The notes under the pieces were generated by a model. The model ran no database searches. It was not told where the DNA came from and was given only the letters and a program-made list of their open reading frames with translations. A stretch of DNA of 64,000 bases from Bacillus sp. CH30_1T (lineage in GTDB: Bacteria; Bacillota; Bacilli; Bacillales; Bacillaceae_B). Below are positions 42,426-62,777 of this stretch, in pieces; position 1 is the first letter of the stretch; each line of letters opens with the position of its first letter. The DNA lies in contig NZ_VTUY01000013.1 in the NCBI RefSeq assembly GCF_008364765.1, positions 1-64,000 of the forward strand. The letters run 5' to 3'. The translations under genes were made by a program, and so were the position numbers.

Positions 42426-42443
42426 AAAACCCGCCCCCCTAAT

Positions 42444-42965: not shown

Positions 42966-42993
42966 GATACTTGAATGTTTTTAATAATAATAT

Positions 42994-43607: not shown

Positions 43608-43619
43608 TTTAACACTTTG

Positions 43620-43795: not shown

Positions 43796-43821
43796 TATAT
43801 TTTTTCTCAGAAAATAAAATC

Positions 43822-43990: not shown

Positions 43991-44053
43991 TAAATATATT
44001 ACCAGTCCATTCCACTAGCCTAGTAGGAATTCTAAAATGTTGCATATCACAAG

Positions 44054-46881: not shown

Positions 46882-47444
46882 TTTGATTCCCCATATCGAT
46901 AATTAATTTCTGCATCTTTTAAAAGTGGTGCCTTCTTATCCTTTGCAGATAACACAGGAGTGATATCCTCCGGCCATTCAATTCCAATTTCTGGATCGTC
47001 CCAAGCGATACCGCAATCGTATTCAAGTGCATACAGCTCGTCCACCTTATATTGAACTTCAACATTATCTGTTAATGTCATAAACCCATGTGCAAAGCCC
47101 TTTGGAACAAGCAATTGCTTTTTGTTTTCTCTAGACAACTCAATCCCATACCATTGTCCAAACGTAGGACTTTCTTTTCGGATATCAACAGCCACATCAA
47201 AAATAGAACCTCTTGTACATCTGACCAGTTTCGTTTGCGCCTTTGGATTTAATTGATAATGCAGACCGCGTAAAGTCCCCTTTTTGACTGAAAGAGACTG
47301 ATTATCTTGAACGAACTGAAAATCAATTCCGCCTTCTTTAAATTTTTCCTTATTATAAGTCTCCATAAACCAACCACGATGATCCCCAAATACATTGGGC
47401 TCAATAATTAATATATCTTCAATATGAGTTTTTACAACTTGCAC
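46878..47444 (-). CDS. rfbC: dTDP-4-dehydrorhamnose 3,5-epimerase
   Basis: This 188-residue cupin-fold epimerase shows GDHRGWFMETYN, the active-site RGLHYQLNPKAQTKLVRC and KQLLVPKGFAHGF. It lies between thymidylyltransferase and reductase in the rhamnose operon. Length is normal for the family. Confidence 0.95.
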   Translation of the reverse strand: MQVVKTHIEDILIIEPNVFGDHRGWFMETYNKEKFKEGGIDFQFVQDNQSLSVKKGTLRGLHYQLNPKAQTKLVRCTRGSIFDVAVDIRKESPTFGQWYGIELSRENKKQLLVPKGFAHGFMTLTDNVEVQYKVDELYALEYDCGIAWDDPEIGIEWPEDITPVLSAKDKKAPLLKDAEINYRYGESK

Positions 47445-47460
47445 ATGATCACCTTTTCAA

Positions 47461-48339
47461 TTAATACTTAATTTTAGCGTTTGCTACTTTTAATAAATAC
47501 TTTCCATAACCTGTCTTTGAGGAAAGTTCACCAGACTTTAATAATTGTTCTCTTTCAATCCATCCATTAATAAATGCAATTTCCTCTGGTGCAGCTATTT
47601 TAACGCCTTGATGTTCTTCGACCGTGCGAACAAAATTACTTGCAGAAAACAGACTGTCATGAGTACCTGTATCTAGCCATGTAAAACCTCTTCCAAGAAG
47701 CTCTACCTCTAATTGTCCAACCTGAAGGTAAGCTTCATTGACTGATGTGATTTCCAACTCACCACGTAGAGAAGGCTTCACATTCTTTGCTATTTCAATC
47801 ACACTATTATCGTAAAAGTAAAGGCCTGTGACCGCGTAATTAGATTTTGGTACCTCTGGCTTTTCTTGAATACTTATAACCTTACCATTCTCATCAAATT
47901 CAACAACACCAAAACGTTCAGGATCCTGAACATGATAACCAAATACAGTTGCACCTGTTTCTCTCTGTGCGGCTCGTTGAAGAATTTTCCTCATGCCACT
48001 TCCATAATAGACATTGTCTCCAAGAATCATCGCAACAGAATCATTTCCAATGAATTCATCACCAATAATAAAAGCTTGCGCTAATCCATCAGGGCTAGGT
48101 TGAATCTTATATTGAAGAGAGATTCCAAACTGTGAACCATCCCCTAACAATTCCTCAAACCTTGGAGTATCCTCTGAGGTCGAAATGATTAAAATCTCAC
48201 GAATACCGGCCAACATCAACGTTGATAGAGGATAATAAATCATTGGCTTATCATAAATCGGTAATAACTGTTTACTTGTAACCAAGGTAAGTGGATACAA
48301 TCTTGTTCCACTTCCACCAGCTAAAATAATTCCTTTCAT
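47461..48339 (-). CDS. rfbA: Glucose-1-phosphate thymidylyltransferase
   Basis: This 292-residue nucleotidyltransferase begins [18 protein letters not shown] with the GGxGTRLxPLT loop and has [18 protein letters not shown] and LGDNVYYG. It starts the dTDP-rhamnose pathway and is first in the operon. The rhamnose may decorate the cell wall, or, because the operon lies directly downstream of an acyl/polyketide-type cluster containing a glycosyltransferase-like gene, that product. Confidence 0.96.
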
Positions 48340-48713: not shown

Positions 48714-48756
48714 AAAAAGGCACGGCTAGCTTAAAGTACTAGTCGTGCCTTTCTTC
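48714..48756 (-). terminator. Terminator of the acyl/polyketide-type cluster
   Basis: Arms AAGGCACGACTAG and CTAGCCGTGCCTT form a near-perfect 13-base stem, followed by TTTTTG on the minus strand. It lies about 60 bases after the acpS stop and closes the 49-63 kb operon before the rfb operon. Confidence 0.88.
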
Positions 48757-48813
48757 GTGCGAAAATTCCGATTGTCACCTACAAGAACCGTCCCGTGTGC
48801 TCTCTGCCTACCC

Positions 48814-49200
48814 CTATATATCTGATTCAATAATCACGAATGCAGCGGCAGTTTCTTCTGTATGTGTAATAGTTAGGTGAAAAATTGTATTTTCGGAAAA
48901 TAAAGACTGGACTTTGCCTGATAAATAAAACTCTGGTTTACCAAGATGGTTAGGTTTAACCTCTAAATCTTTTAACCCTATTTGCTTCCCAAAACCAGTA
49001 CCTATTGCTTTTACACCAGCCTCTTTGGCTGCAAACCTACCAGCCAGCCATTCCATTCTTCTCTTTTCGTTTTCGATTTCCTGAAAATAGCTAAGCTCAT
49101 TGTCTGTTAACATGCGTTTTACAAAAGACATTGAAGTTCTATTTAATGCTTTCGTTATTCGTTTTATTTCCGTCAAATCCATTCCAATGCCTACTATCAT
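48814..49200 (-). CDS. acpS: Holo-acyl-carrier-protein synthase, AcpS type
   Basis: This 128-residue phosphopantetheinyl transferase begins MIVGIGMDLTEIKRI (catalytic Asp in the D-x-x-E motif), has WLAGRFAAKEAGVKAIG (Glu of the KE motif) and ends with LTITHTEETAAAFVI. GGAGG precedes the ATG. It most likely loads phosphopantetheine on the cluster ACP at 57993-58280. A housekeeping acpS is expected elsewhere in the genome, so this is probably a dedicated copy. Confidence 0.92.
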   Translation of the reverse strand: MIVGIGMDLTEIKRITKALNRTSMSFVKRMLTDNELSYFQEIENEKRRMEWLAGRFAAKEAGVKAIGTGFGKQIGLKDLEVKPNHLGKPEFYLSGKVQSLFSENTIFHLTITHTEETAAAFVIIESDI

Positions 49201-49231
49201 TTATTACTCCTCCACCATTCTTTACGCTTGT

Positions 49232-51679
49232 TTATTGGATATACTGACTAACAACTAGGGAATTATAATTGCCCCCATAAGCGAATGAATTGATGAGAGC
49301 ATTTTTTACATCCGCCCGTCGAGTATTAGTTACTAAGTCTAGTTCTACTCGTGGATTTGGATTTGTTAAATGTTGAATGGCAGGTACTACTCCACTAAAT
49401 GCTAATATTGAACTTAATATTCCTATAGCCCCTGCAGTACCATGTGTTTCGCCAAATACAGATTTAGGGGCACTTACAGGAGTATCATTCCCAAATACTC
49501 TTGATAAAACTCTAGATTCGATAGCATCGAAAGTTTTATGACCACTTGCAGATGAAGCAATATACCCAATGTTACTTACTTCTAAACCCGCTTCAGCTAA
49601 AGCTAATTCTATCGATTTTTCCCACGCTTCCCCTGTTGGATTAATTCTTCCAATTTTACTATTATCGGAGGTCATTCCAAAACCTTTAATTTCCGCATGA
49701 ATCTCTGCCCCACGCTCCTTCGCAGATTCATCACTTTCAAGGACAAATGCTACACTTCCTGCACCGAGAATATTTCCGCTAGATTCAACATCAAACGGTT
49801 TTGCTTTATCCTTTGTTAAATATCCTGGTATTCTATGCATACCAGCTAACATAGGCTCATTGAACTCATCTGATGAAACAACAATAACCTGCTTACAAAT
49901 CCCTTGTTGAATTAAACTATTAGCATAAAATAATCCATTAATTGCTGAGACTCCACCCGCACAAATAGTAGACGTAGGGCCCTTTAATTTAAAATTTAAA
50001 CCTATATGTCCAGCCGCTGCATTCATAACTGTATTTGGGAAGCGGCGTGCATTTGCCTTTTGAGCACCTTCAGAGATAACCACGCGATTAAATGCTTCAA
50101 CCGTTTCAATCGGACCAGTTCCAGTAGCAAAAATCAAACCAACTTCTTCACTATTATCACGATTTATTTTTATATTTGCGTCCTTAATAGCCATATTGGT
50201 GGCAACAGCTGCTTGCTTACTAATGGTATCCATCTTTCTAAGTAATTTAGGGTTCACGAATTTACCATACTTTATTTCTGGAATGATTCCTGCATCCTGA
50301 TACCCATAGATACTTGTATCAAATTCTGTAATCTCGGAAATACCACTCTCTCCATTCTTCAATAGCGAATAAATCTCCTCTACATTAGAAGCATTTCCTG
50401 CAATTGCTCCTACCCCTGAGATTACAACTCTCCTTTTAGAATAATTCACAACTGGCTTATTGGATTCAGTTTTTGCACCAAACATTATTGTTGCATTATT
50501 ACCTCCGAATGCAAAAGAGTTTGATAAAACTAAATCTACATTTCCTTTTCGAGAATTGTTAGGAACAAAATCTAAGTCAAATTTGGAGCTTTCTTCCTTA
50601 AAATTTACAGTTGGAGGAATAACTCCTTTCTTTATAGCTAGAATACTAGTAACAGCTTCCGCAGCTCCAGCTGCACCAAGCATATGTCCTATCATCGATT
50701 TAGTAGAAGAAATAGGTGGTGAATATTCCTTTAATAAAGACCTTAATGCCTTAGGTTCTGATGAATCATTTGCTGGGGTCCCTGTTCCATGTCCATTAAT
50801 ATAAGAGATATCTTTTGGCTCATAACCTGCTTGCATTAAAACGTTCTTCATGGATTGAAGTGCTCCTGATCCAGCTGGGTCTGGAGCCGTTTGATGATAA
50901 CAGTCAGCTGACAAAGAATAGTCAAGGACTTCTGCCAGAATTTCTGCCCCCCTGGCTTCTGCATAATCCAATCTTTCAAGGACTAAGAATGCGGCACCTT
51001 CACCAATATTAACTCCATTACTTTCGCTGTATGGTGAACACGGTCCATCACATAAAGCTTGTAAACTATTAAACCCACTAAGTGATAATTTAGTTAATGG
51101 ATCAACACCGCCCGCTAACATAACATCAGCTTTCCCTGAACGAATTGTATCTAGAGCATACCCAACCGAATTGGTCCCTGCAGCACAAGCATTTGAAATC
51201 ACACTTTTAGGACCTTTTATCCCTAAGTCAGTTGCTACATTATCAGCTGGAACATGGATTGGGTATTTAAAGATAAGAGAACGATCAGTATGGTTAATGT
51301 CTTTATTAATCCACTGCTCGTGAAATTTCTCGCCACTTGCTATCCCCCCCAGAGAGGTTCCTAGTATAAGGCCAGCTCGGTATGGGTCATTAGAGAAATC
51401 AATATTTGCGGAACTAACTGCTTCACGAGCTGCAAGCACAGCAAATTGACCTGCTCTATCTAATTGAAGAAGTTCTTTTTTCGTAAAGTAATTGGAGGGA
51501 ATAAATTTTTCAACCTCTCCACCATAGTTTGTACTTAAATCAGATAAATCTAGTTCTTTCACTAATTTTATACCGCTTTTCCCCTCAATAATATTTCCCC
51601 AGAATTCCTCAACGTTCTTTCCATTTGCACAGATAATGCCGATTCCCGTTACAGCTACCTGAAATTTCTTAAACTGCAT
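49232..51679 (-). CDS. Ketosynthase-ketosynthase didomain protein (KS-CLF-like fusion)
   Basis: This 815-residue protein is two beta-ketoacyl synthase units in tandem. The first (about 1-400) has a full catalytic triad: Cys165 in ISNACAAGTNSVG, His287 in NGHGTGTPAND and His322 in KSMIGHMLGAAGAAEA. The second (about 407-815) keeps a Cys near 563 in TICAGGVSAING. It has SASGHKTFD where HGTGT is expected and KSVFGETHGTAGA in place of KSxxGHTxGAAG, so it is degraded and may serve as a chain-length-factor-like partner. AAGGAG lies 11 bases before the ATG at 51679; a TTG at 51688 is too close. KS and CLF are normally separate genes in type II polyketide systems. Confidence 0.88.
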   Translation of the reverse strand: MQFKKFQVAVTGIGIICANGKNVEEFWGNIIEGKSGIKLVKELDLSDLSTNYGGEVEKFIPSNYFTKKELLQLDRAGQFAVLAAREAVSSANIDFSNDPYRAGLILGTSLGGIASGEKFHEQWINKDINHTDRSLIFKYPIHVPADNVATDLGIKGPKSVISNACAAGTNSVGYALDTIRSGKADVMLAGGVDPLTKLSLSGFNSLQALCDGPCSPYSESNGVNIGEGAAFLVLERLDYAEARGAEILAEVLDYSLSADCYHQTAPDPAGSGALQSMKNVLMQAGYEPKDISYINGHGTGTPANDSSEPKALRSLLKEYSPPISSTKSMIGHMLGAAGAAEAVTSILAIKKGVIPPTVNFKEESSKFDLDFVPNNSRKGNVDLVLSNSFAFGGNNATIMFGAKTESNKPVVNYSKRRVVISGVGAIAGNASNVEEIYSLLKNGESGISEITEFDTSIYGYQDAGIIPEIKYGKFVNPKLLRKMDTISKQAAVATNMAIKDANIKINRDNSEEVGLIFATGTGPIETVEAFNRVVISEGAQKANARRFPNTVMNAAAGHIGLNFKLKGPTSTICAGGVSAINGLFYANSLIQQGICKQVIVVSSDEFNEPMLAGMHRIPGYLTKDKAKPFDVESSGNILGAGSVAFVLESDESAKERGAEIHAEIKGFGMTSDNSKIGRINPTGEAWEKSIELALAEAGLEVSNIGYIASSASGHKTFDAIESRVLSRVFGNDTPVSAPKSVFGETHGTAGAIGILSSILAFSGVVPAIQHLTNPNPRVELDLVTNTRRADVKNALINSFAYGGNYNSLVVSQYIQ

Positions 51680-51698
51680 ACCACACAAATCTCCTTAA

Positions 51699-52817
51699 TT
51701 AAACAATTTTAATTGCCCATGATTTTGGAGTAATATATGGAGAAGAAACAGTTTGAATTACTACTTGATTCCCCTCAGAATTTAATCCTCCCATTTCTAA
51801 ACCAGAGACTGCGAACTCACTAGCCATTAAAGCTAAACCCAAATTCTTTCTAAGGGTATAGCTATACTCAACCTGAATAACTGAGCCTACTTTTTCATTT
51901 TCAATAATGATGGAATCTCCTTCAGCTAAAGCAGCGTCCTCATCAAAAATAAAGCCAACTAGTCTCTTTTCTACCTCTTGTTCTTTTAGTGATTCAATAG
52001 CCTCCATTGCTAAGAATTCTTCTTTTTCAAAGCTAATTAACCATTCAAAGCAAGATTCAAATACCGTATGATCTTTTACTTCAAAATCAACATTCGGCTG
52101 TCTTACTTCTAGCATTGTAATATTTACCGCTTGAGAACCTACTGGCTGAACAACGCATTCATCCTCACTTTGATCTAATAAAAAGCTCCAAAGGTCTAAA
52201 GCGGACTCCATTTGAACAAATACTTTATAACCATACTCACCAGTAACACCTGTACGAGCAAAAATTAATTTTTCATTATTCCAAGTTGTCTCTACAAACG
52301 ACTGAAATGGTAAAGATGAAATGTCAAAATCGATTAACTGTTGTCCAACCTTCCAGGCATATGGACCTTCAAAAGCAATGATGGCTAGCTCATTACTTAT
52401 ATCTTCAATTACTACTTGATCATTATTATGGTAATGTTCTAAAAAGCTATAAACTTCATCCCGTTTAGAAACTGAAGTTTCAAGTAATATATAATCCTCT
52501 TGTTTATAAATCGTCACTAAATCTACTACATGGCCCTCTTCATCGACAAAAAGGGAAAAAGCAGTTTTTTCTATATCCAAATACTCTATATCCATTGAAG
52601 TTAGGTAATTTACAAACTCTACATGATCTTCTCCTGTGATTTTAAATTTTCCATTCGAAGAGTAATCAATCAGCCCTACATATTTTCGAAGGGCATTGTA
52701 TTCTTCTTCTACACCACTGTAGGCTCCTACGACTTCATACCCACCATTATTTAGTACTGTCGCATTACCCTTTATAGAATTAGTAAAAATTGCTTTTTTA
52801 TCGGTACTTGTTATCAC
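51699..52817 (-). CDS. GcvT-like folate-binding protein
   Basis: This 372-residue protein matches the aminomethyltransferase (GcvT/YgfZ) fold: EYNALRKYVGLIDYSSNGKF, ITGEDHVEFVNYLTSMDI, ARTGVTGEYGYKVFV and a C-terminal barrel-like part (KRLVGFIFDEDA, YTLRKNLGLALM). In the glycine cleavage system such proteins transfer a one-carbon unit to tetrahydrofolate. No other glycine-cleavage gene is present. It starts at GTG overlapping the preceding stop by 4 bases, so it is co-translated with the glycosyltransferase-like gene. It may add or remove a methyl/methylene group on the cluster product, which is inference. Confidence 0.75.
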   Translation of the reverse strand: MITSTDKKAIFTNSIKGNATVLNNGGYEVVGAYSGVEEEYNALRKYVGLIDYSSNGKFKITGEDHVEFVNYLTSMDIEYLDIEKTAFSLFVDEEGHVVDLVTIYKQEDYILLETSVSKRDEVYSFLEHYHNNDQVVIEDISNELAIIAFEGPYAWKVGQQLIDFDISSLPFQSFVETTWNNEKLIFARTGVTGEYGYKVFVQMESALDLWSFLLDQSEDECVVQPVGSQAVNITMLEVRQPNVDFEVKDHTVFESCFEWLISFEKEEFLAMEAIESLKEQEVEKRLVGFIFDEDAALAEGDSIIIENEKVGSVIQVEYSYTLRKNLGLALMASEFAVSGLEMGGLNSEGNQVVIQTVSSPYITPKSWAIKIV

Positions 52818-54163
52818 TTTGATAACCTCTCTTTCATTTTTTTATCAAGAATAAACTCCATCATGTCATTTGCATCAGGAGTATTAATTATTAAATTAAT
52901 ATATTTTTCTTGTTTTTCATTAACTATTTTTTTTGTTTTTTCACAGTACAAAAGATTATAAATTTTCTCGCCAGTTTCTCTTATATTGAATATCTCAGAA
53001 ATCTCTATTGCTTCCATAAATGGATTGTTTGCGAGTAAAGGTTGTAGTTCATCTACCCATCCATTCGGAAACGTTAAAAATGGATAAATACCTTTTGGAA
53101 GTACTTTTGTCCACTTTTGCAGGATTGCATCTCTTCCTTCCTGAGATTCCCAAATCTCAGGAAACAATAGATTTCCACCATCACCTGTATTTACCTTGGT
53201 ATTTACTAAACTCAGAACAGGGACATACCCAAATAACGCTTTTGCCATTGAACATGAAGTAACATTATCTGTTATAAAAAGGTCACATGAGAATAATAAA
53301 TCTTCATATTCTTTTATGTTTAGAAATGACATACCGACAAACTTTATCTTTGATTCGCTTGCATGTTGAATTAAGCTATTTTCAGGAGCTATCCCAACGA
53401 TAACAACCTTAGACGGAACTTCTCTTACTCCTAGATAGCACTCAATTAACTGCTGAATAAAGTGTTCATAACTATATTTCCTATCCATGTATAACTTAGT
53501 TTCCATTAAACGCATTTTCACAAATAAATTTGCCCATGCTGCCTTAGATACCATAATTAATTTATCAGTTTTGGAATGACATCCAAACCTTTGTCTTACC
53601 TCTTCCTTCTTAATCAATTCCATATTAAATGGACGTTTATAAAGAGTAACTGGCTGAATTCTTTCATTCTTAACACTAGGATCATTGATTGGGCAAGTAC
53701 GGATCACTTTCATCGTTTCTGGTATCTTTCTTAAAAAAGCTTCTGCTTTACTCGTTGATCTTGTTCGCTTCAACAAATTTTCTTCGAATAAACGATTCTT
53801 TAATACTTTGGATTCGGTTCCAAAACAAAGTGAATCAATAGTAGCTGTTGGAAGTCCTAAACTTAATACAAAATCTAAGTCTATTAAAGGTGATTCCAGG
53901 TCTAGATTATGATAATCTGCAATGATAATCGCATCTGGGTCAAAGCTCTGAACTACTTCTTTCACGGCCACTGTTTGCATCGTTTTTTTCCTTAGTGGAG
54001 TAGCTTTCACACCTGAATTCAGGGCATAATCCAGATGATTTTGACTGGTTAAAAAGTGGCATGTCCTCCCATTTGATTCTAGTTGTCTAGATAAATAGAT
54101 CGCATTATGCAACTCCCCAATACTAAATTGGCTGGGCGCAATAAAGAGTACCTTTTCCTTCAC
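52814..54163 (-). CDS. Glycosyltransferase-like protein (possibly DUF6365)
   Basis: This 449-residue soluble protein has a GT-B-like look: an N-terminal Rossmann start KVLFIAPSQFSIGELHNAIY (substrate-side loop), ATIDSLCFGTES, and a second half with KVVIVGIAPENSLIQ, KIKFVGMSFLNIKEYEDLLF and CDLFITDNVTSCSMAKALFG (nucleotide-sugar-side features). I think it may belong to DUF6365, but this needs a profile search. It starts at GTG with GGGAGG upstream. The adjacent rhamnose pathway would be a plausible sugar source. Confidence 0.55.
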   Translation of the reverse strand: MKEKVLFIAPSQFSIGELHNAIYLSRQLESNGRTCHFLTSQNHLDYALNSGVKATPLRKKTMQTVAVKEVVQSFDPDAIIIADYHNLDLESPLIDLDFVLSLGLPTATIDSLCFGTESKVLKNRLFEENLLKRTRSTSKAEAFLRKIPETMKVIRTCPINDPSVKNERIQPVTLYKRPFNMELIKKEEVRQRFGCHSKTDKLIMVSKAAWANLFVKMRLMETKLYMDRKYSYEHFIQQLIECYLGVREVPSKVVIVGIAPENSLIQHASESKIKFVGMSFLNIKEYEDLLFSCDLFITDNVTSCSMAKALFGYVPVLSLVNTKVNTGDGGNLLFPEIWESQEGRDAILQKWTKVLPKGIYPFLTFPNGWVDELQPLLANNPFMEAIEISEIFNIRETGEKIYNLLYCEKTKKIVNEKQEKYINLIINTPDANDMMEFILDKKMKERLSK

Positions 54164-54179
54164 ATCCGTTCCTCCCTTA

Positions 54180-57100
54180 CTAACTTATATTTATGTGACT
54201 TTTAGCTTCTTCTAGTGTTCGACTAATACAGATATAAATAGAAAATTTACCCACATCTTTCTTAACACTTCTATTTTTTAAAGATTGTATAAAAGATAAC
54301 TGAAAGCCTTGATCCGGCCACTCCGAAATGACAAGTTGTAAGTCTTCTGATTCTCCCCATAAGGTGAGGTAAAAGTCTTTTCCTACGTCTAATATTGCTT
54401 TTGTATCACTTGTATAGACTCTCCTCCTGATTCCACATTCTCTCAGAATATTTTCGCCTAATATATTCCAAAAGTAGACTTGTCGTTTCCTGCCCAGCTT
54501 ATTCCAAAATGAATGGAGTGCAATGTTGAATATTTGATTCGCCTTGATTAAGTCTGTATATAAAATCTCTAATTTTAATTTTGGCGATCCTGGACGTGTA
54601 AGATAGTTAACTACATAGTCTTGTCCTCTACAGCTAATACCTTCCCAGGAGTCCTTTATAGAAGAGCCACCCTTAACCAATTCAGATATAAACGTCTCTA
54701 TATATCTATCTTCAAAAAGGTATCCTTTTTCAATATCTATCTCATGCTCTATTAAATGTGGATATATACCACCTGGGGTTGCTGTATTTTGTCCCCAATT
54801 TTTAAATCGAGGAAAATGGGAGCTTAGTAAATTTTTCGGACCGTATTTCAAACTAATTAATGAACCTTGAAGGTCAGGTGAAACTTCAAATTCTAGAAAA
54901 CCATTATTGACTGAATAAACACTTATTGACCTTTTCTCTTTTTTTTCAATAGTAACTATAGAACCATTTTCAATCACATCTAACTGAAAATTCTTTTTTG
55001 CATAAATTCCTTTTTCCATATTTTCGAATGTAATGGTCCCATTAATAATTTTCTTATCGGTTTTCACATCAATTAAGAAAGAAAATTCTAAAGGATGTGT
55101 AGAATGAATAGCTCCAACTGATTGACTTTTATTGAAGTTTAAGGCCGGGATATTGAGTTCAAGTTTTCCACATAATTCACTTAGATGGACCACTTTTACT
55201 TTTCCTTTCAGTTTAAGGGTATCTATATTTGAAACTGCATCAGGTAGAATTAAACTAATATTTGCTCTCCCGCTATTCTCTTGTTGGACTCCAACTAGGT
55301 TCCATATAGATTGTTCATCAATATCTCTAGTTAAATCTATATTAAAATAGTGAGAAGCGTCGGGAATATTGTCAGCTATAATGCCCTCGATTGATTTAAT
55401 TGTCTTATTTTTATTGAAGTTTTTTAAATAATTGTTTTCACCTAGAAATAAGTACTGTTTATCCCAGTTTTTTTTATTGATTTTCCTGTAGTCGCGAATG
55501 CTTGAACAGCGATTAAAAATAACAGACGGCATCCAGCGCATTCCATACATAACAGAATTGACTTCACCTTCCCATGTCATTTTTACTTTTATCTCTTTAT
55601 TTTCAAACAAGGTCCACGGCTTGAAGTATGCCTTAGGGTCGCTCGGTAGATCTTGATCTCTCATATATTCGAAATCATTCGTAAGGAAAGGAAAGTCCTC
55701 AAATATTAAAGTATCTCTCACAATACCTGATACAAAAGGTATATTAATGATTGAATCTTTTATCGAGCACCAAGGGGTAATCTTCAATACTTCTCCTTTA
55801 CCTATCGCATAATCCTCTATCCCTATCATACTGTTACCACCAAGTGTAATCTTGCGTATTAAATGAACTTTGTCATCTTTAAGCTCTATAGCTATTAGGG
55901 TATTTTCTTCGTTGGGCTCGAGAATAATTATTTTACGTTTAGGCATGCGCTTCACTGTACCTATAAAAGGTAGACCTAAATCAGGCCAAGCTTCGCGAAC
56001 AACTTGATTTCCTGCTATTCGTTCAGTAATGCTTAATCCGCCCGTACTTTCTTCAAGTTTTACAGAGATTTTAGAATTCTCAAGAATAATGTTACCTATA
56101 CCGTCTTTGAATCTCACGCTAGAGAAACGGGAAATAATCGGTAATTCTAGAACCTTAGTGTGAACTCTGTCATGGTTATTGTTATATAGAATTACTTCTA
56201 TTAAGTCGATTCCAGTACCTAGACATTTAAGATGAACTGGATATTGAATTGAATCCCTGGCAGGGATGACTAATTCTTTTATCCCGGATTTATCTAATTT
56301 AATCCTCGTAGAATCAACAGCACGAATCTCAATCAGTCCCTTAAATTGTTTGGAAGTATGATTTACGAGGTTTAACTTGATCTTTGTTGGTTGATTAGTT
56401 AGTAAAGAAGTATTTTCTGCCACAGAAACAGCCAATGGTCTTGTGGCATTATACCCGTAATGAAATGAAAACTTATAATCACCAAACTTAACAGTCGATC
56501 GCAAACTACTAAATTCCAGTATATGATGTGGGATGATTATATATTCTTTCCAACTAATCTTTTCACCTGGTGCCAAAAGCCTTGACTTTTTACCATTTCT
56601 ATAAGAAAGGGCTCTTTCACCAATCTTACTATTAAAAGAAACAAGCATTCTTTGATCGAGCCGGTTTTCAAACTCAAATATAGCCGTTACCGTTTGGCCT
56701 TGATTAAGTTCCTGGCCTTCTTCAATATAACTTATGAACCTAAAACGGGGGTCCTCCATCATCGCTACCTTTTCACTTAACATATCAACCCAGCAGGAAA
56801 AACTTTCATTATCAAATTTCATTTCATATTGATAGGTTTCCATTCCATGCAATGCATATGTATCATTACTCGTAGAACGAATGTTACTTGCACTAATTAA
56901 GCTTTTCCAACCACTTTCAACTAAAGAATCATTCAGGGTTGTAACATTATAACTTTGTTTTAAGAATTGAGTCACCAAAGGTAGATAGCATCTTAATTCT
57001 AAATATCCATCATAATCAAGTATAGATTTCTCTCTTCTAATGAACCCGACACGCTTATATAACGGGAGTGCAGCACTGTTAGTTGGATCAACATCAACAT

Positions 57101-57458
57101 CTATATATTTATAACCTAGTTCTGTTAATTGCTTAATTGAATTCGAAAAAAACATCCCTGGTAAAGGACCGTTACGAAATTGGGGATGGATTAAAAAGTT
57201 ACTTCCCCAAACTGCGTCAGTATCAGCAGCCTTTTGGCCACAGTGCGTAGAAAATAACATAGTCCCAATGATTTTATCCTCATATTCTAAGCATAAGAAT
57301 AGAACAATTTTAGAATGTATAAACAACCTTTGTACATCACTTTCTTTTAGTAAGCAACCATGTGTAACTGGACCATACTCAAATTTATTGAAAAAATTTG
57401 AAATTTGTTCAGCATCTTCTTTCACACACTTTCTAAGTTTAACTTTACCGAGTTCCAT
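54180..57458 (-). CDS. Large GNAT-fusion protein of unknown function
   Basis: This 1092-residue protein has an N-terminal GNAT acetyltransferase domain (about 5-165; core FLIHPQFRNGPLPGMFFSNSIKQL and the distal NSAALPLYKRVGFIRRE). More than 900 residues follow, predicted beta-rich, with repeated Ig- or sandwich-like stretches and a C-terminal part (for example EFEVSPDLQGSLISLKYGPK, WPDQGFQLSFIQSL) that resembles beta-sandwich carbohydrate-active enzymes only in general character. No signal peptide is present, so it should be cytoplasmic. It could N- or O-acylate the product using the ACP-bound chain. No family covering the large part is recognised. Confidence 0.65.
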   Translation of the reverse strand: MELGKVKLRKCVKEDAEQISNFFNKFEYGPVTHGCLLKESDVQRLFIHSKIVLFLCLEYEDKIIGTMLFSTHCGQKAADTDAVWGSNFLIHPQFRNGPLPGMFFSNSIKQLTELGYKYIDVDVDPTNSAALPLYKRVGFIRREKSILDYDGYLELRCYLPLVTQFLKQSYNVTTLNDSLVESGWKSLISASNIRSTSNDTYALHGMETYQYEMKFDNESFSCWVDMLSEKVAMMEDPRFRFISYIEEGQELNQGQTVTAIFEFENRLDQRMLVSFNSKIGERALSYRNGKKSRLLAPGEKISWKEYIIIPHHILEFSSLRSTVKFGDYKFSFHYGYNATRPLAVSVAENTSLLTNQPTKIKLNLVNHTSKQFKGLIEIRAVDSTRIKLDKSGIKELVIPARDSIQYPVHLKCLGTGIDLIEVILYNNNHDRVHTKVLELPIISRFSSVRFKDGIGNIILENSKISVKLEESTGGLSITERIAGNQVVREAWPDLGLPFIGTVKRMPKRKIIILEPNEENTLIAIELKDDKVHLIRKITLGGNSMIGIEDYAIGKGEVLKITPWCSIKDSIINIPFVSGIVRDTLIFEDFPFLTNDFEYMRDQDLPSDPKAYFKPWTLFENKEIKVKMTWEGEVNSVMYGMRWMPSVIFNRCSSIRDYRKINKKNWDKQYLFLGENNYLKNFNKNKTIKSIEGIIADNIPDASHYFNIDLTRDIDEQSIWNLVGVQQENSGRANISLILPDAVSNIDTLKLKGKVKVVHLSELCGKLELNIPALNFNKSQSVGAIHSTHPLEFSFLIDVKTDKKIINGTITFENMEKGIYAKKNFQLDVIENGSIVTIEKKEKRSISVYSVNNGFLEFEVSPDLQGSLISLKYGPKNLLSSHFPRFKNWGQNTATPGGIYPHLIEHEIDIEKGYLFEDRYIETFISELVKGGSSIKDSWEGISCRGQDYVVNYLTRPGSPKLKLEILYTDLIKANQIFNIALHSFWNKLGRKRQVYFWNILGENILRECGIRRRVYTSDTKAILDVGKDFYLTLWGESEDLQLVISEWPDQGFQLSFIQSLKNRSVKKDVGKFSIYICISRTLEEAKSHINIS

Positions 57459-57482
57459 AATGTATAACCCCGCTACTCTTTG

Positions 57483-57992
57483 TTAATCTGGTCTTTGAGA
57501 AACTGTAAGTGTACCAGTAGCTACACAGTCATGATTCACATATGCAGAAACCTTTACTTTTGAAAGAATTCCATAACTTTTTCCAATATTAGCACGAAGA
57601 CGCAACTGATCACCAGGTGTTACCGGCTTCATAAACTTCATATCCTTTATTGCAACTAGATAACCTACTCTTGAAGAAATATCTATATCCTTTGCAAGAC
57701 TTTCTGCTGCTCCTGCTACTTCCTCAAAAGATTCCTCCATTGCTTCTAAAGCACCGGTACAATAAACAACTGCTGTAAGTTGAGCCAATGCTTCCACGAT
57801 GAGAACACCTGGCATGATTGATTCATTTGGAAAATGCCCCTCAAAGAAAGGCTCACTGATTGTCACATTTTTAATTGCAGTACCTGTTATTCCTGGTTTA
57901 AGTTCAACAACTCGATCTAAAAGCAGAAATGGCCACCGATGAGGAATGATTTTTCTGATTTCATTCACATCAAGAACGTTTTTCAAAACCAA
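57483..57992 (-). CDS. 3-hydroxyacyl-ACP dehydratase, FabZ-like
   Basis: This 169-residue hotdog-fold enzyme has the catalytic His in IIPHRWPFLLLDRV and Glu in MPGVLIVEALAQL, plus GHFPNESIMPG, all diagnostic of FabZ. It is longer than housekeeping FabZ (about 140) because of an insert of roughly 25 residues around GALEAMEESFEEVAGAAESL. The TTG at 57992 directly follows the ACP stop. GAGGAG is better spaced for a TTG two codons on (57986), so the start is uncertain. Confidence 0.87.
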   Translation of the reverse strand: MVLKNVLDVNEIRKIIPHRWPFLLLDRVVELKPGITGTAIKNVTISEPFFEGHFPNESIMPGVLIVEALAQLTAVVYCTGALEAMEESFEEVAGAAESLAKDIDISSRVGYLVAIKDMKFMKPVTPGDQLRLRANIGKSYGILSKVKVSAYVNHDCVATGTLTVSQRPD

Positions 57993-58280
57993 TCACTCCT
58001 CACTATTCACAACAATGTAATCTGCCAATTTATTAATAGAACTAAACACTTCAATGTTGTCGTCATAAACCGTAACATTGAATTCATCTTCAATGACAAC
58101 AAATAATTCTAACGCGTCAATTGAATCAAGTCCTAAACCACGTCCAAAAATCGGTTGATCATCTGTTATTAAACTTGGTTCAATTTCTAAATCTAATCTT
58201 TCAACAATAATTTCCTTTAGTCTCTCTGTTAATTCTCTTCTCTCTTGAGCTAATTTTTGAGTCTCTTGATAGGCATACAT
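57993..58280 (-). CDS. Acyl carrier protein
   Basis: This 95-residue acidic protein has the phosphopantetheine site GLDSIDALELF (Ser53) and a typical four-helix ACP pattern. It is longer at the N-terminus than FabAcpP by about 12 residues. It sits between ketoreductase and dehydratase genes and is the only ACP in the cluster. AAGGTAG precedes the ATG. Confidence 0.93.
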   Translation of the reverse strand: MYAYQETQKLAQERRELTERLKEIIVERLDLEIEPSLITDDQPIFGRGLGLDSIDALELFVVIEDEFNVTVYDDNIEVFSSINKLADYIVVNSEE

Positions 58281-58298
58281 CTCTACACTACCTTTCTA

Positions 58299-59045
58299 TT
58301 ATCCATTTATTAATCCACCATCAATGGTGAAAACTTTACCTGTAATATACGAAGATTTCTCAGAACTTAAAAAAGAAACAAGATTGGCCACCTCTTGCGG
58401 CTTTCCCATTCTTCTCAATGGAACTAATTCCATCATTTGGGACAGGGTTGTTTGATCCATAGCTTTTGTCATATCAGTTTCAATAAAACCGGGTGCAACC
58501 ACATTCGCACGAATATTATACTGTGACGCCTCTAACGCTAAGCTTTTGGTAAAGGAAATTATACCTCCCTTTGAAGCAGAATAATTCGTTTGTCCTTTTG
58601 CACCGGAAATACCACTTGTTGAAGCAATATTTACAATTGTCCCACTCTTACTAATCATCATTTGCTTAACTGCTTCTCTTGAACATAAAAAAGTTCCTCG
58701 TAAGTTAACATTGATGACCTCGTCCCATTTCGGGCTACTCATTAATGGTAAAAAGCCATCCTTTGTAATCCCACTATTATTTACAAGGATATCCAGTCTG
58801 CCATAATGTTTTTTGACGTCCTTAAATAACTGTTTTACTTCTTTTTCGTTAGATACATCAACTTTATAAGATATGACATTCCCACCAGAATTTTTAATTT
58901 CGTAAAGTGTCTCATCCATTTTGTTGCTACTACTAACATAAGTCAGGACAAGATTTACTCCTTGACTAGCTAGTTCAAGAGCAACTGCTTTGCCTATCCC
59001 TTTAGATGCACCAGTTACTACTGCTACTTCATCTCCTTTAAACAA
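58299..59045 (-). CDS. 3-oxoacyl-ACP reductase, FabG-like
   Basis: This 248-residue SDR ketoreductase has the cofactor motif VVTGASKGIGKAVAL, NNSG and the catalytic Ser-Tyr-Lys (IASTSGIS, NYSASKGG). It ends ITGKVFTIDGGLING as in FabG. The frame opens at a GTG (59054), but GAGGTGAG is 6 bases before the TTG at 59045, so that start is chosen. It should reduce beta-keto groups made by the cluster ketosynthase. Confidence 0.91.
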   Translation of the reverse strand: MFKGDEVAVVTGASKGIGKAVALELASQGVNLVLTYVSSSNKMDETLYEIKNSGGNVISYKVDVSNEKEVKQLFKDVKKHYGRLDILVNNSGITKDGFLPLMSSPKWDEVINVNLRGTFLCSREAVKQMMISKSGTIVNIASTSGISGAKGQTNYSASKGGIISFTKSLALEASQYNIRANVVAPGFIETDMTKAMDQTTLSQMMELVPLRRMGKPQEVANLVSFLSSEKSSYITGKVFTIDGGLING

Positions 59046-59095
59046 AGAACTCACCTCATTTAATTATTACATCCCTATATATAAATCCTGAAAAA

Positions 59096-60043
59096 TTAAT
59101 ATTCTTTCATAAATGTTTTTGAGGATTTTTTCACACTTTTTTTATATGACATTACCGATTCTGTTGAATAAGTAGTAATTGCCTTTTTACCAAATGATCT
59201 CATCAAACCTGATAATGTTTTACTTGGTCCCACTTCAAAAATCTCCTGGATATCAAAAGAATGAAGAGACTCAATCGTTTGCTTCCATAGAACTGGCTGT
59301 GTACATTGGAGTCTAATATCTTCAAGGATAGCGGCCTTTTTCCACGTTAATTTACTATCACAGTTTAAGATGATAGGAATCTCTGGTTCGTTTAAAGAAA
59401 ACCCACTAACATAATCATAAAAACCTGACTCCATCTCTTCCATTAACTTTGAATGAAAACCCTGGCTAACATTTAAGAGTTTCGTTTTAATTCCTGGAAT
59501 GGAATCCATATACTCTTTAAATTTCACTATCAGGTCGACCTCTCCAGAAAAGACAATCTGTAATGGAGAGTTGTGGGCTGCCAATTCAACATTGAAATCA
59601 AATGATTTATCTATAACCTCCAAAATTTGCTCCTCCTTGGAGCCTACAACAGCCAACATTGTCCCTTTCCTTTTAACTCTAGCCATACTCTTTCCACGCT
59701 GATGAACAATCTTTAGTGCATCTGAAAATTGGTAGGAACCTGCAGCAACTAATGCTGAAAACTGTCCAATACTATGTCCAGCAACATAATCTGGCGTAAC
59801 CCCTTCACTTTCAAGTAGTTTATACACTCCTACACTTGTAGTTAAAATGGCTGGTTGAGCAATATCAGTAGATGTTAATGTCTCATTCGGGCCAAAAAAA
59901 CATAATTTTTTTAAAGGAACCCCCAAAGCATCCTCTGCTTCTTCGAATATTGTTGTAAATATAGAAGGAAATTGTTTATAAAAATCTTTTGCCATCCCTA
60001 TATGTTGAGAACCTTGTCCAGGAAATATAAAGGCTTTACTCAT
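59096..60043 (-). CDS. Malonyl-CoA:ACP transacylase, FabD-like
   Basis: This 315-residue acyltransferase has FIFPGQGSQHIGM, the nucleophilic Ser91 in AGHSIGQFSALVA and His in SQGFHSKLMEEM. The usual FabD motif is GHSLGE; the GHSIGQ here resembles specialised transacylases of polyketide clusters. It overlaps the thioesterase stop by 4 bases (ATGA). It loads malonyl units for chain extension, presumably. Confidence 0.9.
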   Translation of the reverse strand: MSKAFIFPGQGSQHIGMAKDFYKQFPSIFTTIFEEAEDALGVPLKKLCFFGPNETLTSTDIAQPAILTTSVGVYKLLESEGVTPDYVAGHSIGQFSALVAAGSYQFSDALKIVHQRGKSMARVKRKGTMLAVVGSKEEQILEVIDKSFDFNVELAAHNSPLQIVFSGEVDLIVKFKEYMDSIPGIKTKLLNVSQGFHSKLMEEMESGFYDYVSGFSLNEPEIPIILNCDSKLTWKKAAILEDIRLQCTQPVLWKQTIESLHSFDIQEIFEVGPSKTLSGLMRSFGKKAITTYSTESVMSYKKSVKKSSKTFMKEY

Positions 60044-60456
60044 GACACACCTCCAAGGAAGATATCAATTTTTTGCTTAATGTCATCTGGTAGCTTCAAA
60101 ATTAAAGTACCATCAGTCCGTGTAAACGCATGTTCCGAGCTTCCCTTTACTAAGAGTTTTCGACCGTATTTACGATAAACTCTGTATTCAAAATGGAGGT
60201 AGGCTTTCTTCGGTTTTACTAGCGCCGTTTCAACTATAACGGTCTCACCAAACTTCGCTGAACTTTTATAATTACAATTTATATTAATTACAGGCATAAA
60301 CAGTTTTCGACTGGCTTTTTCTAAATTCAGACCAGCTTCTGTTGCTAACTGAACCCTACCCACTTCAAACCATGAAAAATAATTTGAGTGATGAACAACA
60401 CCCATGGGATCACACTCAACATAGCGTACAGGTATTTCCACCTTCACCCATCTCAT
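60040..60456 (-). CDS. Acyl-CoA/ACP thioesterase, 4HBT hotdog family
   Basis: This 138-residue protein matches YbgC/FadM-type thioesterases, with the active-site segment RYVECDPMGVVHHSNYFSWFEVGR (Asp in DPMGVVHHSNY). It may release or edit the chain. GGGGGGT is 6 bases before the ATG at 60456, so the frame opening at 60483 is not used. It is co-translated with fabD. Confidence 0.87.
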   Translation of the reverse strand: MRWVKVEIPVRYVECDPMGVVHHSNYFSWFEVGRVQLATEAGLNLEKASRKLFMPVININCNYKSSAKFGETVIVETALVKPKKAYLHFEYRVYRKYGRKLLVKGSSEHAFTRTDGTLILKLPDDIKQKIDIFLGGVS

Positions 60457-60525
60457 CTTTTGACCCCCCAAAAAAACCGGCACCTTCTATCATTAATAAA
60501 TTTTCTTTGTCGGTACAACCACAGA

Positions 60526-61776
60526 TTAATTAAATTTAAATAATCGAACTGATAATATTAAAAAAAGAATCCCCATCCCAAATAAAACAACAATTGAAGC
60601 AATGATGGTGGATAACCCCTCTCCATAAATCAGGAGATTATTAAATGCACTCATAGACCAAGCAGTAAGGGTGACATGGGCTACTTTTTGAAGCCATTCA
60701 GGCACAATATATAGAGGCCACCAAGAACCACCTAATGCAGACATCGATAATACGATTAGAAGAGAGACACCACTTGCTTGGGCGCGAGTTTTACAAATAG
60801 ATGCAATAAACATCGCTAACCCTGTGGCTGCAAATGCAGTGGCAATGACTAATAGGATTAATCCTGTAATTGAGTTACCAAGCCACATCCCAAATATAAA
60901 ATGCCCAACTGTAAAAAGAACAAGCATTTGAAAAAGGGCTGTTAGAAAATTTGAAAGCATCTTTCCACCCAATATAGAAAATCTTGAAATTGGAAGTGTC
61001 TGTAATTTCCTTAAGGTTCCTCTGTCTCGTTCTTCTAGTAAACTAGTTGCACCAGCAGCTGTACCTAAAAGAACAAACATTACAGCGTAACCAGGGACAT
61101 TAGATTCAAAAGGAGTTGCCTCATGCTCTACCTCTTTTGTTTCCGATGTCTCCACGACTACTTTAACCGGTGGGTGATCAGTATAGTATTCACTTTGCTC
61201 TTTGATTGTTTCTATTTCAGCAGAAGGATCAATAGAAATACCATGTACCTGTTGTGTTTGCTGAGTAATATTTAGTACAGCAGTAGAACCAATTAAATTC
61301 ACTACATTAACCATTGATAATTTGGCGGTATATTGAGAGAGAATATCATTAACAACCCCAGGTATCACTCGATCCACCGGATCCTTTAATACAATTATTT
61401 CAGCATTTTCACCATTTTTAACTTTTTCTGAGAAACCATTAGGTATAATGATTGCAGCCTTTTTATCAGCTATCATATTTTCAGCTTCTTCTCTAGTTAA
61501 ATTTGCTTCTTCCCCATCACTTGTTTTGTAGGTTTCGATAAGTTTTATGGCACTAGTTTCATCTAATACACTAACTAAGTTTTCAGCTACCTCTCCATCA
61601 TCTTCTATTACAATAGGGATGGAAAACTGCTCTACCTCCCCTTCAGTAAACATTCCCGACAAAGCAAAACTTGCAATCGCGATAATGATGACAGGAGTTA
61701 ATATCAAATACAAAAGTCCCGGGATATCACGTATAAAAATTCGTAGGTCCTTAGTTGCAATATTCCATATACCCAA
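60526..61776 (-). CDS. ABC-2 type transporter permease
   Basis: This 416-residue permease has one N-terminal membrane segment (about 18-43), a large extracytoplasmic domain (about 45-225) and five more spans from about 230 on. The signature EERDRGTLRKLQTLPISRF is typical of DrrB/YhgE-like ABC-2 permeases. It starts at TTG with GGAGG 6 bases upstream. It pairs with the ATPase just upstream (gap 14 bases) and probably exports the cluster product. Confidence 0.9.
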   Translation of the reverse strand: MGIWNIATKDLRIFIRDIPGLLYLILTPVIIIAIASFALSGMFTEGEVEQFSIPIVIEDDGEVAENLVSVLDETSAIKLIETYKTSDGEEANLTREEAENMIADKKAAIIIPNGFSEKVKNGENAEIIVLKDPVDRVIPGVVNDILSQYTAKLSMVNVVNLIGSTAVLNITQQTQQVHGISIDPSAEIETIKEQSEYYTDHPPVKVVVETSETKEVEHEATPFESNVPGYAVMFVLLGTAAGATSLLEERDRGTLRKLQTLPISRFSILGGKMLSNFLTALFQMLVLFTVGHFIFGMWLGNSITGLILLVIATAFAATGLAMFIASICKTRAQASGVSLLIVLSMSALGGSWWPLYIVPEWLQKVAHVTLTAWSMSAFNNLLIYGEGLSTIIASIVVLFGMGILFLILSVRLFKFN

Positions 61777-61790
61777 GTTAATCCTCCGTT

Positions 61791-62777
61791 CTAATCTCGC
61801 AGTTTCTTTCCTGTAAGCTGCAGAAAAACATCCTCTAAATCGGTTTCCCTTACATTAAATTTACTTACTACTAAGCCCTCTTTACGAATGTAGCTTAGTA
61901 TTTCCTCAGTTCTTTCTAGCAGCTGTTCCGATTGAATATAAAGCATGTCATTGACATAATTAACCGAATCTATGTTTTCCATATCACGAATTTCATCTAG
62001 TAGTCTATCATCCACGTCTTTAATCTTAAGCTCTAATTGCTTTTGTCCATGCTTAGACAATAGGGATGTTGTAGCATCTACATCCAATATTTCTCCTTGA
62101 TCATAAATGGCCACTCGATCACAAAGTGTCTCAGCCTCTTCCATATAGTGTGTTGTATAAATAACACTCATCTTAAGATCATTTATTAAATACTTAATGG
62201 ATTCAAAGATATGATTCCTAGATTGGGGATCCACCCCCACTGTTGGTTCATCTAACAGAATTAATTTCGGATGATTTAATAATCCTATCGCTAAATTAAG
62301 TCTCCGCTTCATTCCTCCTGAAAAAGCTTCAACTTTTTTATTCGAAACATTATGTAATTGTGCAATTTCTAATACCTCATGGATTCTTTCTTTTTTTATT
62401 TTCCCCTTTAATCCATATAAGTTTGCAAAGAACGAAAGATTATCATATGCAGTTAATTCCATATAAAGAGCTAAATCCTGCGGTACCAAACTCACTAGTT
62501 TTTTAACATGATGTAATTCTTTATTACTAATATCAAACCCACAAACCTCTCCGCTTCCACTGTCTGGCTTTAACACCCCGGAAAGCATCGAAATTAATGT
62601 CGTCTTACCTGCGCCATTTGGCCCAAGGAGACCTAGAACCTCTCCTTCATATACATTGAGATTTACATTCTTCACTGCTACAAAATCTCCGTAGGATTTA
62701 GTTAATCCTCTTACGGACACTATTGTGTTAACATTTGATTCAATATTCAAATGTTGATCTTCCAATAATTGATTCAC
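61791..62777 (-). CDS. ABC transporter ATP-binding protein (DrrA-like)
   Basis: This 328-residue ATPase has Walker A GPNGAGKTTLISMLSG, the signature AFSGGMKRRLNLAIGL (FSGG instead of LSGG) and Walker B LILLDEPTVGVDPQSR, with the C-terminal extension of the DrrA/NodI class. It starts at GTG with AAGGAGG upstream and is the first gene of the operon, ahead of the permease. Confidence 0.92.
   Translation of the reverse strand: MNQLLEDQHLNIESNVNTIVSVRGLTKSYGDFVAVKNVNLNVYEGEVLGLLGPNGAGKTTLISMLSGVLKPDSGSGEVCGFDISNKELHHVKKLVSLVPQDLALYMELTAYDNLSFFANLYGLKGKIKKERIHEVLEIAQLHNVSNKKVEAFSGGMKRRLNLAIGLLNHPKLILLDEPTVGVDPQSRNHIFESIKYLINDLKMSVIYTTHYMEEAETLCDRVAIYDQGEILDVDATTSLLSKHGQKQLELKIKDVDDRLLDEIRDMENIDSVNYVNDMLYIQSEQLLERTEEILSYIRKEGLVVSKFNVRETDLEDVFLQLTGKKLRD

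What the first reader, a model, noticed from the sequence alone, without database searches (positions are those of the whole stretch)
48814..62777. Compact type II fatty-acid/polyketide-like cluster with its own exporter
Twelve minus-strand genes with short gaps or 4-base overlaps form one apparent operon: ABC ATPase, ABC-2 permease, thioesterase, FabD, FabG, ACP, FabZ, GNAT-fusion, glycosyltransferase-like, GcvT-like, KS-KS fusion, AcpS. Seen directly: gene order and catalytic motifs. Known: KS, KR, DH, ACP and MAT together can build and process acyl chains. Inferred: a dedicated exported specialised acyl metabolite. I do not recognise this gene set as a described Bacillus pathway.
Basis: partly seen in the sequence, partly recalled or inferred. 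Interest (0 to 1): 0.88.

Follow-up and report, generated by a model that had tools for sequence, protein, structure and literature searches.

The report
Granadaene-type polyene pigment gene cluster
This twelve-gene operon is a relative of the bacterial 'cyl' operon that makes granadaene, an orange-red membrane-active pigment, so it belongs to a known kind of pathway, but comparing it with its relatives casts doubt on the published role of one of the enzymes.

Summary
In detail: twelve intact minus-strand genes (48814-62777), with gaps of 0-42 bases or 4-base overlaps, form one apparent operon followed by a terminator-like hairpin. The 'KS-KS fusion' is a ketosynthase fused to a chain-length factor. 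The reading as an unrecognised pathway fails: the set matches the cyl operon (granadaene, an ornithine-rhamnose polyene), namely CylA, B, D, G, AcpC, Z, E, F, I, a PPTase and a glycosyltransferase slot, plus a neighbouring dTDP-rhamnose cassette. All twelve genes recur in the same order in Paenisporosarcina indica, and PMC6985545 (2020) already reports cyl operons in Paenisporosarcina and Bacillus species. So it is a new member of a known kind; the product is most likely an exported, glycosylated, amide-capped polyene, structure untested. Differences: CylE of 1092 aa (652 in Lactococcus), DUF6365 in place of CylJ, an extra thioesterase. Most useful by-product: CylF, proposed to release ammonia from glycine, lacks the T-protein's Asp in 8 of 8 Gram-positive copies compared (Leu, Ala or Glu; 10 of 10 housekeeping GcvT have Asp), and CylF-type genes sit beside KS-CLF with no CylE found in 4 of 10 loci. 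That suggests a role in polyene building rather than ornithine supply.

The parts
61791..62777 (-). ABC transporter ATPase (CylA-like), first gene of operon
   Evidence: PF00005; 75% to P. indica
60526..61776 (-). ABC-2 permease (CylB-equivalent)
   Evidence: PF12698; 77% to P. indica
60040..60483 (-). 4HBT/YbgC-type thioesterase; found in all 7 non-lactic Bacilli loci compared, no BLASTP match in the Lactococcus locus or the two enterobacterial loci
   Evidence: PF13279/PF03061
59096..60043 (-). ACP S-malonyltransferase FabD (CylD-equivalent)
   Evidence: TIGR00128; 65% to P. indica
58299..59054 (-). 3-oxoacyl-ACP reductase (CylG)
   Evidence: TIGR01830; 83% to P. indica, 47% to the Lactococcus copy
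57993..58280 (-). acyl carrier protein (AcpC)
   Evidence: PF00550; 88% to P. indica, 45% to the Lactococcus copy
57483..57992 (-). 3-hydroxyacyl-ACP dehydratase (CylZ)
   Evidence: NF000582; 82% to P. indica, 38% to the Lactococcus copy
54180..57458 (-). long CylE: N-terminal GNAT part plus about 900 aa of uncharacterised region; proposed N-acyltransferase
   Evidence: GNAT part matches Lactococcus CylE (E 5e-7); full-length relatives of 1066-1090 aa
52814..54163 (-). DUF6365 protein, probable GT-B-like glycosyltransferase in the CylJ slot (inferred)
   Evidence: PF19892 E 1.9e-76; a 23%-identical copy lies beside KS/CLF genes on a Streptomyces plasmid
51699..52817 (-). CylF: GcvT-fold protein with Leu in place of the T-protein Asp
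   Evidence: PF01571/PF08669; residue check
49232..51688 (-). KS-CLF fusion (CylI): KS triad C168-H300-H335 in the N half; C half lacks the catalytic Cys and both His
48814..49200 (-). AcpS-type phosphopantetheinyl transferase (in the role of CylK)
   Evidence: TIGR00516
48700..48765 (-). terminator-like hairpin after AcpS
   Evidence: -21.8 kcal/mol, z -4.87; not listed by the scan
47461..48339 (-). RmlA, dTDP-L-rhamnose cassette (probably a separate transcript)
   Evidence: TIGR01207; 71% to P. indica
46878..47444 (-). RmlC
   Evidence: TIGR01221; 68% to P. indica
46021..46881 (-). RmlD
   Evidence: TIGR01214; 65% to P. indica
45006..46028 (-). RmlB, only close copy in the genome (the ten other matches have 25-34% identity)
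   Evidence: TIGR01181
63518..64000 (-). tyrosine recombinase running past the window end, followed by three more (contig 5 to 68282); possible island edge
   Evidence: PF00589

Best explanation
The operon is a cyl-like (granadaene-type) polyene pigment pathway. AcpS loads the ACP; FabD makes malonyl-ACP; the KS-CLF fusion condenses units iteratively; FabG and FabZ reduce and dehydrate each beta-keto group, and because no enoyl reductase lies in the operon the double bonds accumulate into a conjugated polyene. The GNAT part of the long CylE then moves the chain from ACP to an amine (ornithine in granadaene). The DUF6365 protein adds a sugar, plausibly L-rhamnose from the adjacent rmlACDB cassette. 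The ABC transporter moves the product to the membrane or outside. The 4HBT thioesterase is probably a proofreading or release enzyme. CylF is inferred to assist the KS-CLF rather than to cleave glycine. Shown here: gene content, order, homology, catalytic residues. Inferred: every reaction, chain length, amine, sugar and bioactivity.
For: The GcvT-like protein led to a Lactococcus allomyrinae plasmid locus with FabD-like, FabG, ACP, FabZ, ABC ATPase, ABC permease, GNAT, aminomethyltransferase, KS, KS, 'cylJ protein' and a weakly PPTase-like gene, i.e. a cyl operon. PMC6985545 (sections 7, 8) defines a cyl core of cylA, G, acpC, Z, E, F, H plus replaceable malonyltransferase, PPTase, GT and permease, names Paenisporosarcina among carriers with an ACP synthase and places rhamnose genes in Firmicute and Chloroflexi operons. 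The window has these classes, CylE by its GNAT part only. Exact 12-gene synteny with P. indica, with rmlACDB adjacent in both genomes on opposite sides. In the 8 fused proteins aligned the KS triad is intact in 8 of 8 N halves and lost in 8 of 8 C halves, as in reducing type II PKS (recalled).
Against: The long CylE matches Lactococcus CylE only over the GNAT part (window residues 5-172, 25% identity, E 5e-7). DUF6365 does not align with the Lactococcus CylJ (hhalign probability 1.3%) and its predicted structure was poor (pLDDT 46), so GT activity rests on sequence look and context. No CylX was identified, which PMC6985545 lists as present in all cyl operons. Five congeners have an rmlB 80-83% identical to this one, in three of three loci inspected without this cluster, so the rml link may be chance. 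Three loci with long CylE (G917, G907, G937) show no DUF6365, ABC-2 or AcpS match within 20 kb, so glycosylation and export are not constant features of this branch. No pigment or metabolite data exist for this strain.
Confidence: 0.83

Rival explanations
1. Aryl polyene (APE)-like pathway: the chain starts on an aromatic acid and the product is an outer-layer antioxidant pigment.
For: The KS-CLF and ACP hit the models PRK09185 (425.6 bits, cut-off 407) and PRK09184 (63.5 bits, below its cut-off of 70), which I recall as APE-associated. The related G074 locus carries two 3,4-AHBA-synthase-like genes and three PaaK-like ligases.
Against: No aromatic-starter or ligase gene and no second stand-alone KS among the operon's ORFs, whereas APE clusters have two KS systems (start of abstract of PMC8358021 in a listing). 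GNAT-CylE, CylF and the P. indica match fit cyl better.
Confidence: 0.06
2. A polyene or shorter acyl chain attached to a surface polysaccharide or teichoic acid, with rmlACDB and DUF6365 serving cell-wall glycan.
For: rmlACDB is probably a separate transcript, and in three congeners inspected rml lies among other sugar and polysaccharide-type genes (read by eye).
Against: DUF6365 lies inside the operon between CylE and CylF with a 4-base overlap to CylF. Same order in P. indica.
Confidence: 0.07
3. Silent or remodelled cluster: intact genes but a changed product, since CylE is long and CylF lacks the T-protein Asp.
For: The full-length GNAT-fusion is in 1 of 36 genomes of the family, the window's own. 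A promoter scan over 48300-63600 gave no more sigma-70-like sites than shuffles (51 against 54.6).
Against: All 12 frames intact; strong conservation with P. indica; the Asp is also absent in other lineages.
Confidence: 0.1

Closest known systems
cyl operon of Streptococcus agalactiae and relatives (granadaene; PMC6985545; compared here through the Lactococcus allomyrinae locus L070)
   Same: Malonyltransferase, KR, ACP, DH, ABC pair, GNAT acyltransferase CylE, GcvT-like CylF, KS and CLF, a PPTase and a glycosyltransferase slot; rhamnose genes near, as reported for some Firmicute operons
   Different: CylE 1092 aa (652 in L070); DUF6365 instead of CylJ; AcpS instead of CylK; KS and CLF in one ORF (two ORFs in L070); extra 4HBT thioesterase; different gene order; no CylX identified
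Paenisporosarcina indica PN2 locus (L015)
   Same: All 12 genes, same order, 52-88% identity; rmlACDB adjacent
   Different: rmlACDB lies upstream rather than downstream; no characterised product found in the papers I saw
   Same: TE, FabD, FabG, ACP, FabZ, CylF, KS-CLF and a PPTase (in Priestia by its annotation; no BLASTP match to the window's AcpS at 1e-3)
   Different: No CylE and no DUF6365 in the fetched stretches; G074 has 3,4-AHBA-type genes, ligases and an ABC exporter; Priestia has an MFS transporter
   Same: TE, FabD, FabG, ACP, FabZ, long CylE (28-31%), CylF, KS-CLF (54-56%) in the same order
   Different: No DUF6365, ABC-2 or AcpS match within the 20 kb fetched
Aryl polyene clusters
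   Same: KS-CLF, KR, DH, ACP reducing type II logic (recalled)
   Different: No aryl starter ligase, no second KS, has CylE and CylF

Membership tests
[quoted passage not shown]
   All seven found by class; CylE only by its GNAT part, E 5e-7 to Lactococcus CylE; orthology by trees not tested
cyl (granadaene-type) operon | CylX, listed in Table 1 of PMC6985545 as present in all cyl operons | not tested
   No ORF identified as CylX and no CylX sequence was compared
cyl (granadaene-type) operon | Malonyltransferase, PPTase, ABC permease, glycosyltransferase (replaceable versions) | tested here: inconclusive
   First three met; GT slot holds DUF6365, activity unproven
cyl (granadaene-type) operon | Product is an ornithine-rhamnose polyene with 12 double bonds, pigmented and membrane-active | not testable with these tools
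   Needs culture, extraction, MS/NMR
Canonical GcvT (T-protein) | GCV_T fold and conserved Glu in the TGE motif | tested here: met
   Glu in 10 of 10 CylF-type and 10 of 10 housekeeping rows
Canonical GcvT (T-protein) | Asp at T. maritima position 96 (catalytic role recalled) | tested here: not met
   Leu in window; the ten CylF-type rows: 3 Leu, 3 Ala, 2 Glu, 2 Asp; ten housekeeping rows all Asp
Chain-length factor (second KS half) | KS fold lacking catalytic Cys and both His | tested here: met
   8 of 8 fused C halves; Cys position Gly in 6, Asn in 1, Glu in 1
Aryl polyene cluster | Aryl starter activation and two KS systems | tested here: not met
   No ligase or second KS among the operon's ORFs
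Housekeeping type II FAS | Sole FabF of the genome | tested here: not met
   Separate FabF at G000:C22:229201-230445

The most novel reading that the evidence does not exclude
CylF, the GcvT-like protein reported as universal in granadaene operons and so far explained only by prediction in the papers I saw, is not an ammonia-releasing glycine-cleavage enzyme but a dedicated partner of the KS-CLF (for priming, chain length or intermediate handling, perhaps folate-binding). It marks a wider 'CylF-type' reducing type II PKS family that makes polyenes with different ends: amide-capped where CylE is present, aryl-started in G074, and unknown in Priestia and enterobacterial plasmids.
Probability: 0.4. 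Interest if true: 0.68.

Novelty: new member of a known kind. Interest (0 to 1): 0.42.

Why it matters
It places a granadaene-type pathway in one more genome, where it is rare (1 of 36 held genomes of the family) and lies next to recombinases, which bears on whether such membrane-active pigments spread laterally (PMC6985545 saw little evidence of extensive transfer). More usefully, the comparison makes the open question of CylF's role testable. The published ammonia-for-ornithine proposal would lead one to expect a working T-protein site and company with the amide-forming CylE; here the Asp is absent in 8 of 10 CylF-type proteins and no CylE was found beside 4 of 10.

Tried and rejected
Rejected readings. 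(1) An unknown pathway: rejected after the Lactococcus cyl locus and PMC6985545. (2) That the second KS half keeps its catalytic Cys: I first read this off alignment A1 and wrote it in notebook entry 2; alignment with the genome's own FabF shows that this Cys sits three residues upstream and that the catalytic position is Gly in the window. (3) A sporulation or exosporium role through Priestia pBM500: the paper on that plasmid (PMC4674009, passages) names BclA proteins there and its main text holds no word beginning 'polyketide', 'acyl' or 'fatty'. (4) Plain orthology of DUF6365 with CylJ: no alignment. (5) Low GC3 as a mark of the island: with all 29 other minus-strand ORFs of at least 100 aa left of rml the mean is 0.357 against 0.263, but 12 of 29 fall within the operon's range, among them all eight from 35622 to 44512, so the low-GC stretch is wider than the operon; an earlier figure of 0.368 used 24 ORFs picked by me.

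Led nowhere. AlphaFold models from two-row alignments were poor (DUF6365 mean pLDDT 46; CylE homologue 32), so no fold search was run. A paper search for PDB entry 9s5h listed only an unrelated paper. Order-wide and phylum-wide samples searched with the DUF6365 protein matched only the window's own genome (1 of 397 and 1 of 398). Further KS-CLF fusions or pairs in other genomes of the order (L065-L068) belong to other gene sets. The catalytic role of the T-protein Asp is recalled; a paper search and one paper's passages did not give it. Supplementary figures of PMC6985545, which show its Bacillus operons, cannot be read here, so I cannot say whether this strain is among them.
Full report
What is there. 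In transcription order: ABC ATPase, ABC-2 permease, 4HBT thioesterase, FabD, FabG, ACP, FabZ, a 1092-aa protein with a weak N-terminal GNAT match, a DUF6365 protein, a GcvT-fold protein, a ketosynthase-ketosynthase fusion and AcpS. Gaps are 0 to 42 bases, with two 4-base overlaps. Just after AcpS an RNA hairpin followed by T's folds at -21.8 kcal/mol (z -4.87, 0 of 200 shuffles as good), so the rmlACDB cassette at 45006-48339 (all four at equivalog level) is probably a separate transcript. The generic scan did not list that hairpin and found no excess of promoters or terminators over shuffles. The genome has another FabF, so this is not its only fatty-acid synthase set.

The fusion is KS-CLF. 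Eight fused proteins (window, P. indica, G074, Priestia, G917, G907, G937, Enterobacter) were aligned with the genome's own FabF. The N half keeps Cys, His and His in 8 of 8. The C half has Gly (6), Asn (1) or Glu (1) at the Cys position and neither His in 8 of 8. The separate Lactococcus KS and CLF ORFs were in the same alignment but are not in these counts. For the whole fusion the best-scoring solved structure is PDB 9s5h, chain B for the first half, and chain C is the best listed for the second; for the C half alone 1j3n ranks slightly higher than 9s5h chain C.

What it is. A plasmid search with the GcvT-like protein (220 records matched, 30 listed) led to a Lactococcus allomyrinae plasmid whose genes are FabD-like, FabG, ACP, FabZ, ABC ATPase, ABC permease, GNAT, aminomethyltransferase, KS, KS, 'cylJ protein' and a weakly PPTase-like gene. 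That is a cyl operon, the pathway of granadaene. PMC6985545 (abstract, passages and sections 7-8 read) describes cyl operons across Gram-positive bacteria, with the core cylA, G, acpC, Z, E, F, H and replaceable PPTase, malonyltransferase, glycosyltransferase and permease; it names Paenisporosarcina among carriers with an ACP synthase, mentions various Bacillus species with two glycosyltransferases, and puts rhamnose genes in Firmicute and Chloroflexi operons. The window has these classes; CylX, which the paper lists in all cyl operons, was not identified or tested. Each window gene has its counterpart in Paenisporosarcina indica PN2 in the same order (KS-CLF 81%, ACP 88%, long CylE 52%), and rmlACDB sits beside both clusters, downstream here and upstream there.

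How it most likely works. Iterative condensation, ketoreduction and dehydration without an operon-borne enoyl reductase give a conjugated polyene on ACP; CylE transfers it to an amine; DUF6365 adds a sugar; the ABC pair exports it. In granadaene the ends are ornithine and rhamnose (PMC6985545 passages; PMC7083881 passages). These steps are inferred from homology. For this operon the amine, sugar and chain length are unknown.

Where it differs. A profile of the five long proteins gave weak two-part matches (GNAT and a stretch near position 810-870) to all five congener proteins of about 1000 aa that I compared; one of these lies in an opp-type operon. (b) DUF6365 does not align with Lactococcus CylJ. 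Its only match in the plasmid collection is a 23%-identical protein beside KS and CLF genes in Streptomyces. (c) A thioesterase is in all seven non-lactic Bacilli loci compared (window, P. indica, Priestia, G074, G917, G907, G937) and had no BLASTP match at 1e-3 in the Lactococcus, Enterobacter and Rahnella loci. The word does not occur in the main texts of PMC6985545 or PMC6920887 (word counts). (d) G917, G907 and G937 show no match to the window's DUF6365, ABC-2 permease or AcpS within the 20 kb fetched, so sugar and export genes are not constant in this branch.

CylF. PMC6985545 proposes that CylF cleaves glycine to give ammonia for ornithine. At the position of T. maritima Asp96 the ten CylF-type proteins have Leu (window, P. 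indica, G074), Ala (G917, G907, G937), Glu (Priestia, Lactococcus) or Asp (Enterobacter, Rahnella); the ten housekeeping GcvT proteins compared (the best ten below the CylF-type hits) all have Asp (numbering from the alignment; its catalytic role is recalled). The Glu of the TGE motif is kept in all twenty. In 4 of the 10 loci no CylE-type protein was found in the fetched stretch: Priestia pBM500 (33 kb), G074 (about 38 kb), Enterobacter (25 kb), Rahnella (21 kb) (the profile was built from five of the other six). The rest of those genomes was not searched. In Rahnella the KS-CLF follows CylF but is split over two overlapping frames. Of Priestia, four plasmid records carry the CylF-type gene and two were looked at. 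G074 carries a DhnA-type aldolase and a 3-dehydroquinate synthase II relative, both also matching the bagremycin/ferroverdin 3,4-AHBA models (below cut-off), and three PaaK-like plus one other adenylating enzyme, which suggests an aryl starter. CylF therefore travels with KS-CLF rather than with the amide-forming step. Against this reading: Glu could still work, the two enterobacterial copies keep Asp, loci without CylE are by the paper's usage not cyl operons at all, and ten loci is a small sample.

Distribution and mobility. The GNAT-fusion at full length is in 1 of 36 genomes of the family, the window's own; ten others had only short GNAT matches. In a class-wide sample of 348 genomes only five CylF-type hits exceed 400 bits (G000, G074, G917, G907, G937), the next being 223 (G000 and G074 rows were in the query alignment). 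Four tyrosine recombinases lie just upstream. This suggests lateral acquisition; insertion boundaries were not mapped, and base composition does not help, because low GC3 extends from about 35600 through the operon. rmlB is the only close copy in the genome. Eleven of 36 genomes including this one have an rmlB match at E 1e-100 or better, five of the others at 80-83% identity, slightly closer than P. indica's 79%, so the rml link is supportive and not proof.

Verdict. A new member of a known kind, with one by-product that bears on an open question. I did not find a description of this exact operon in print in searches; these are capped listings of an open-licence library, and beyond the listings only the passages and sections cited were seen.

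Noticed in passing
L016 9700-19457 (contig 5, 71700-81457; beyond the window): A second specialised-looking cluster: two TldD/PmbA-type proteins, a prolyl oligopeptidase, a Clp-like AAA protein, an FAD oxidoreductase with a weak lysine/ornithine-monooxygenase match, an MFS exporter.
   Followed up: partly
window 63518-64000 and contig 5 to 68282: Four tyrosine recombinases on one strand, three of them nearly contiguous in the manner of a Tn554/RIT recombinase trio (name recalled); another integrase on the other strand at L016 7238-8470.
   Followed up: partly
   Followed up: partly
L071 (Enterobacter bugandensis plasmid) and L072 (Rahnella sikkimica plasmid): CylF-type gene with AcpS, SDR, FabZ, ACP and KS-CLF next to a filamentous haemagglutinin-type gene and its secretion partner, an ABC/lipoprotein-sorting set and a malonyltransferase: an unusual Gram-negative variant.
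   Followed up: no
L065, L067, L068 (G359, G378, G149): Another KS-CLF fusion (764-767 aa) in a different gene set with a KSIII-like protein, an FAD desaturase-like protein and an enoyl-CoA hydratase-like protein; may be a separate type II PKS family in the order (names by eye).
   Followed up: no
L019 7575-10580, and similar ORFs in L020-L023: About 1000-aa GNAT-plus-large-domain proteins, in L019 inside an opp/LD-carboxypeptidase/epimerase/NlpC-type operon (names by eye), distantly like long CylE in two places.
   Followed up: partly
L024 (Streptomyces sp. NBC_00158 plasmid): A DUF6365 gene one gene after a KS/CLF pair, in a stretch with three KS/CLF pairs.
   Followed up: no
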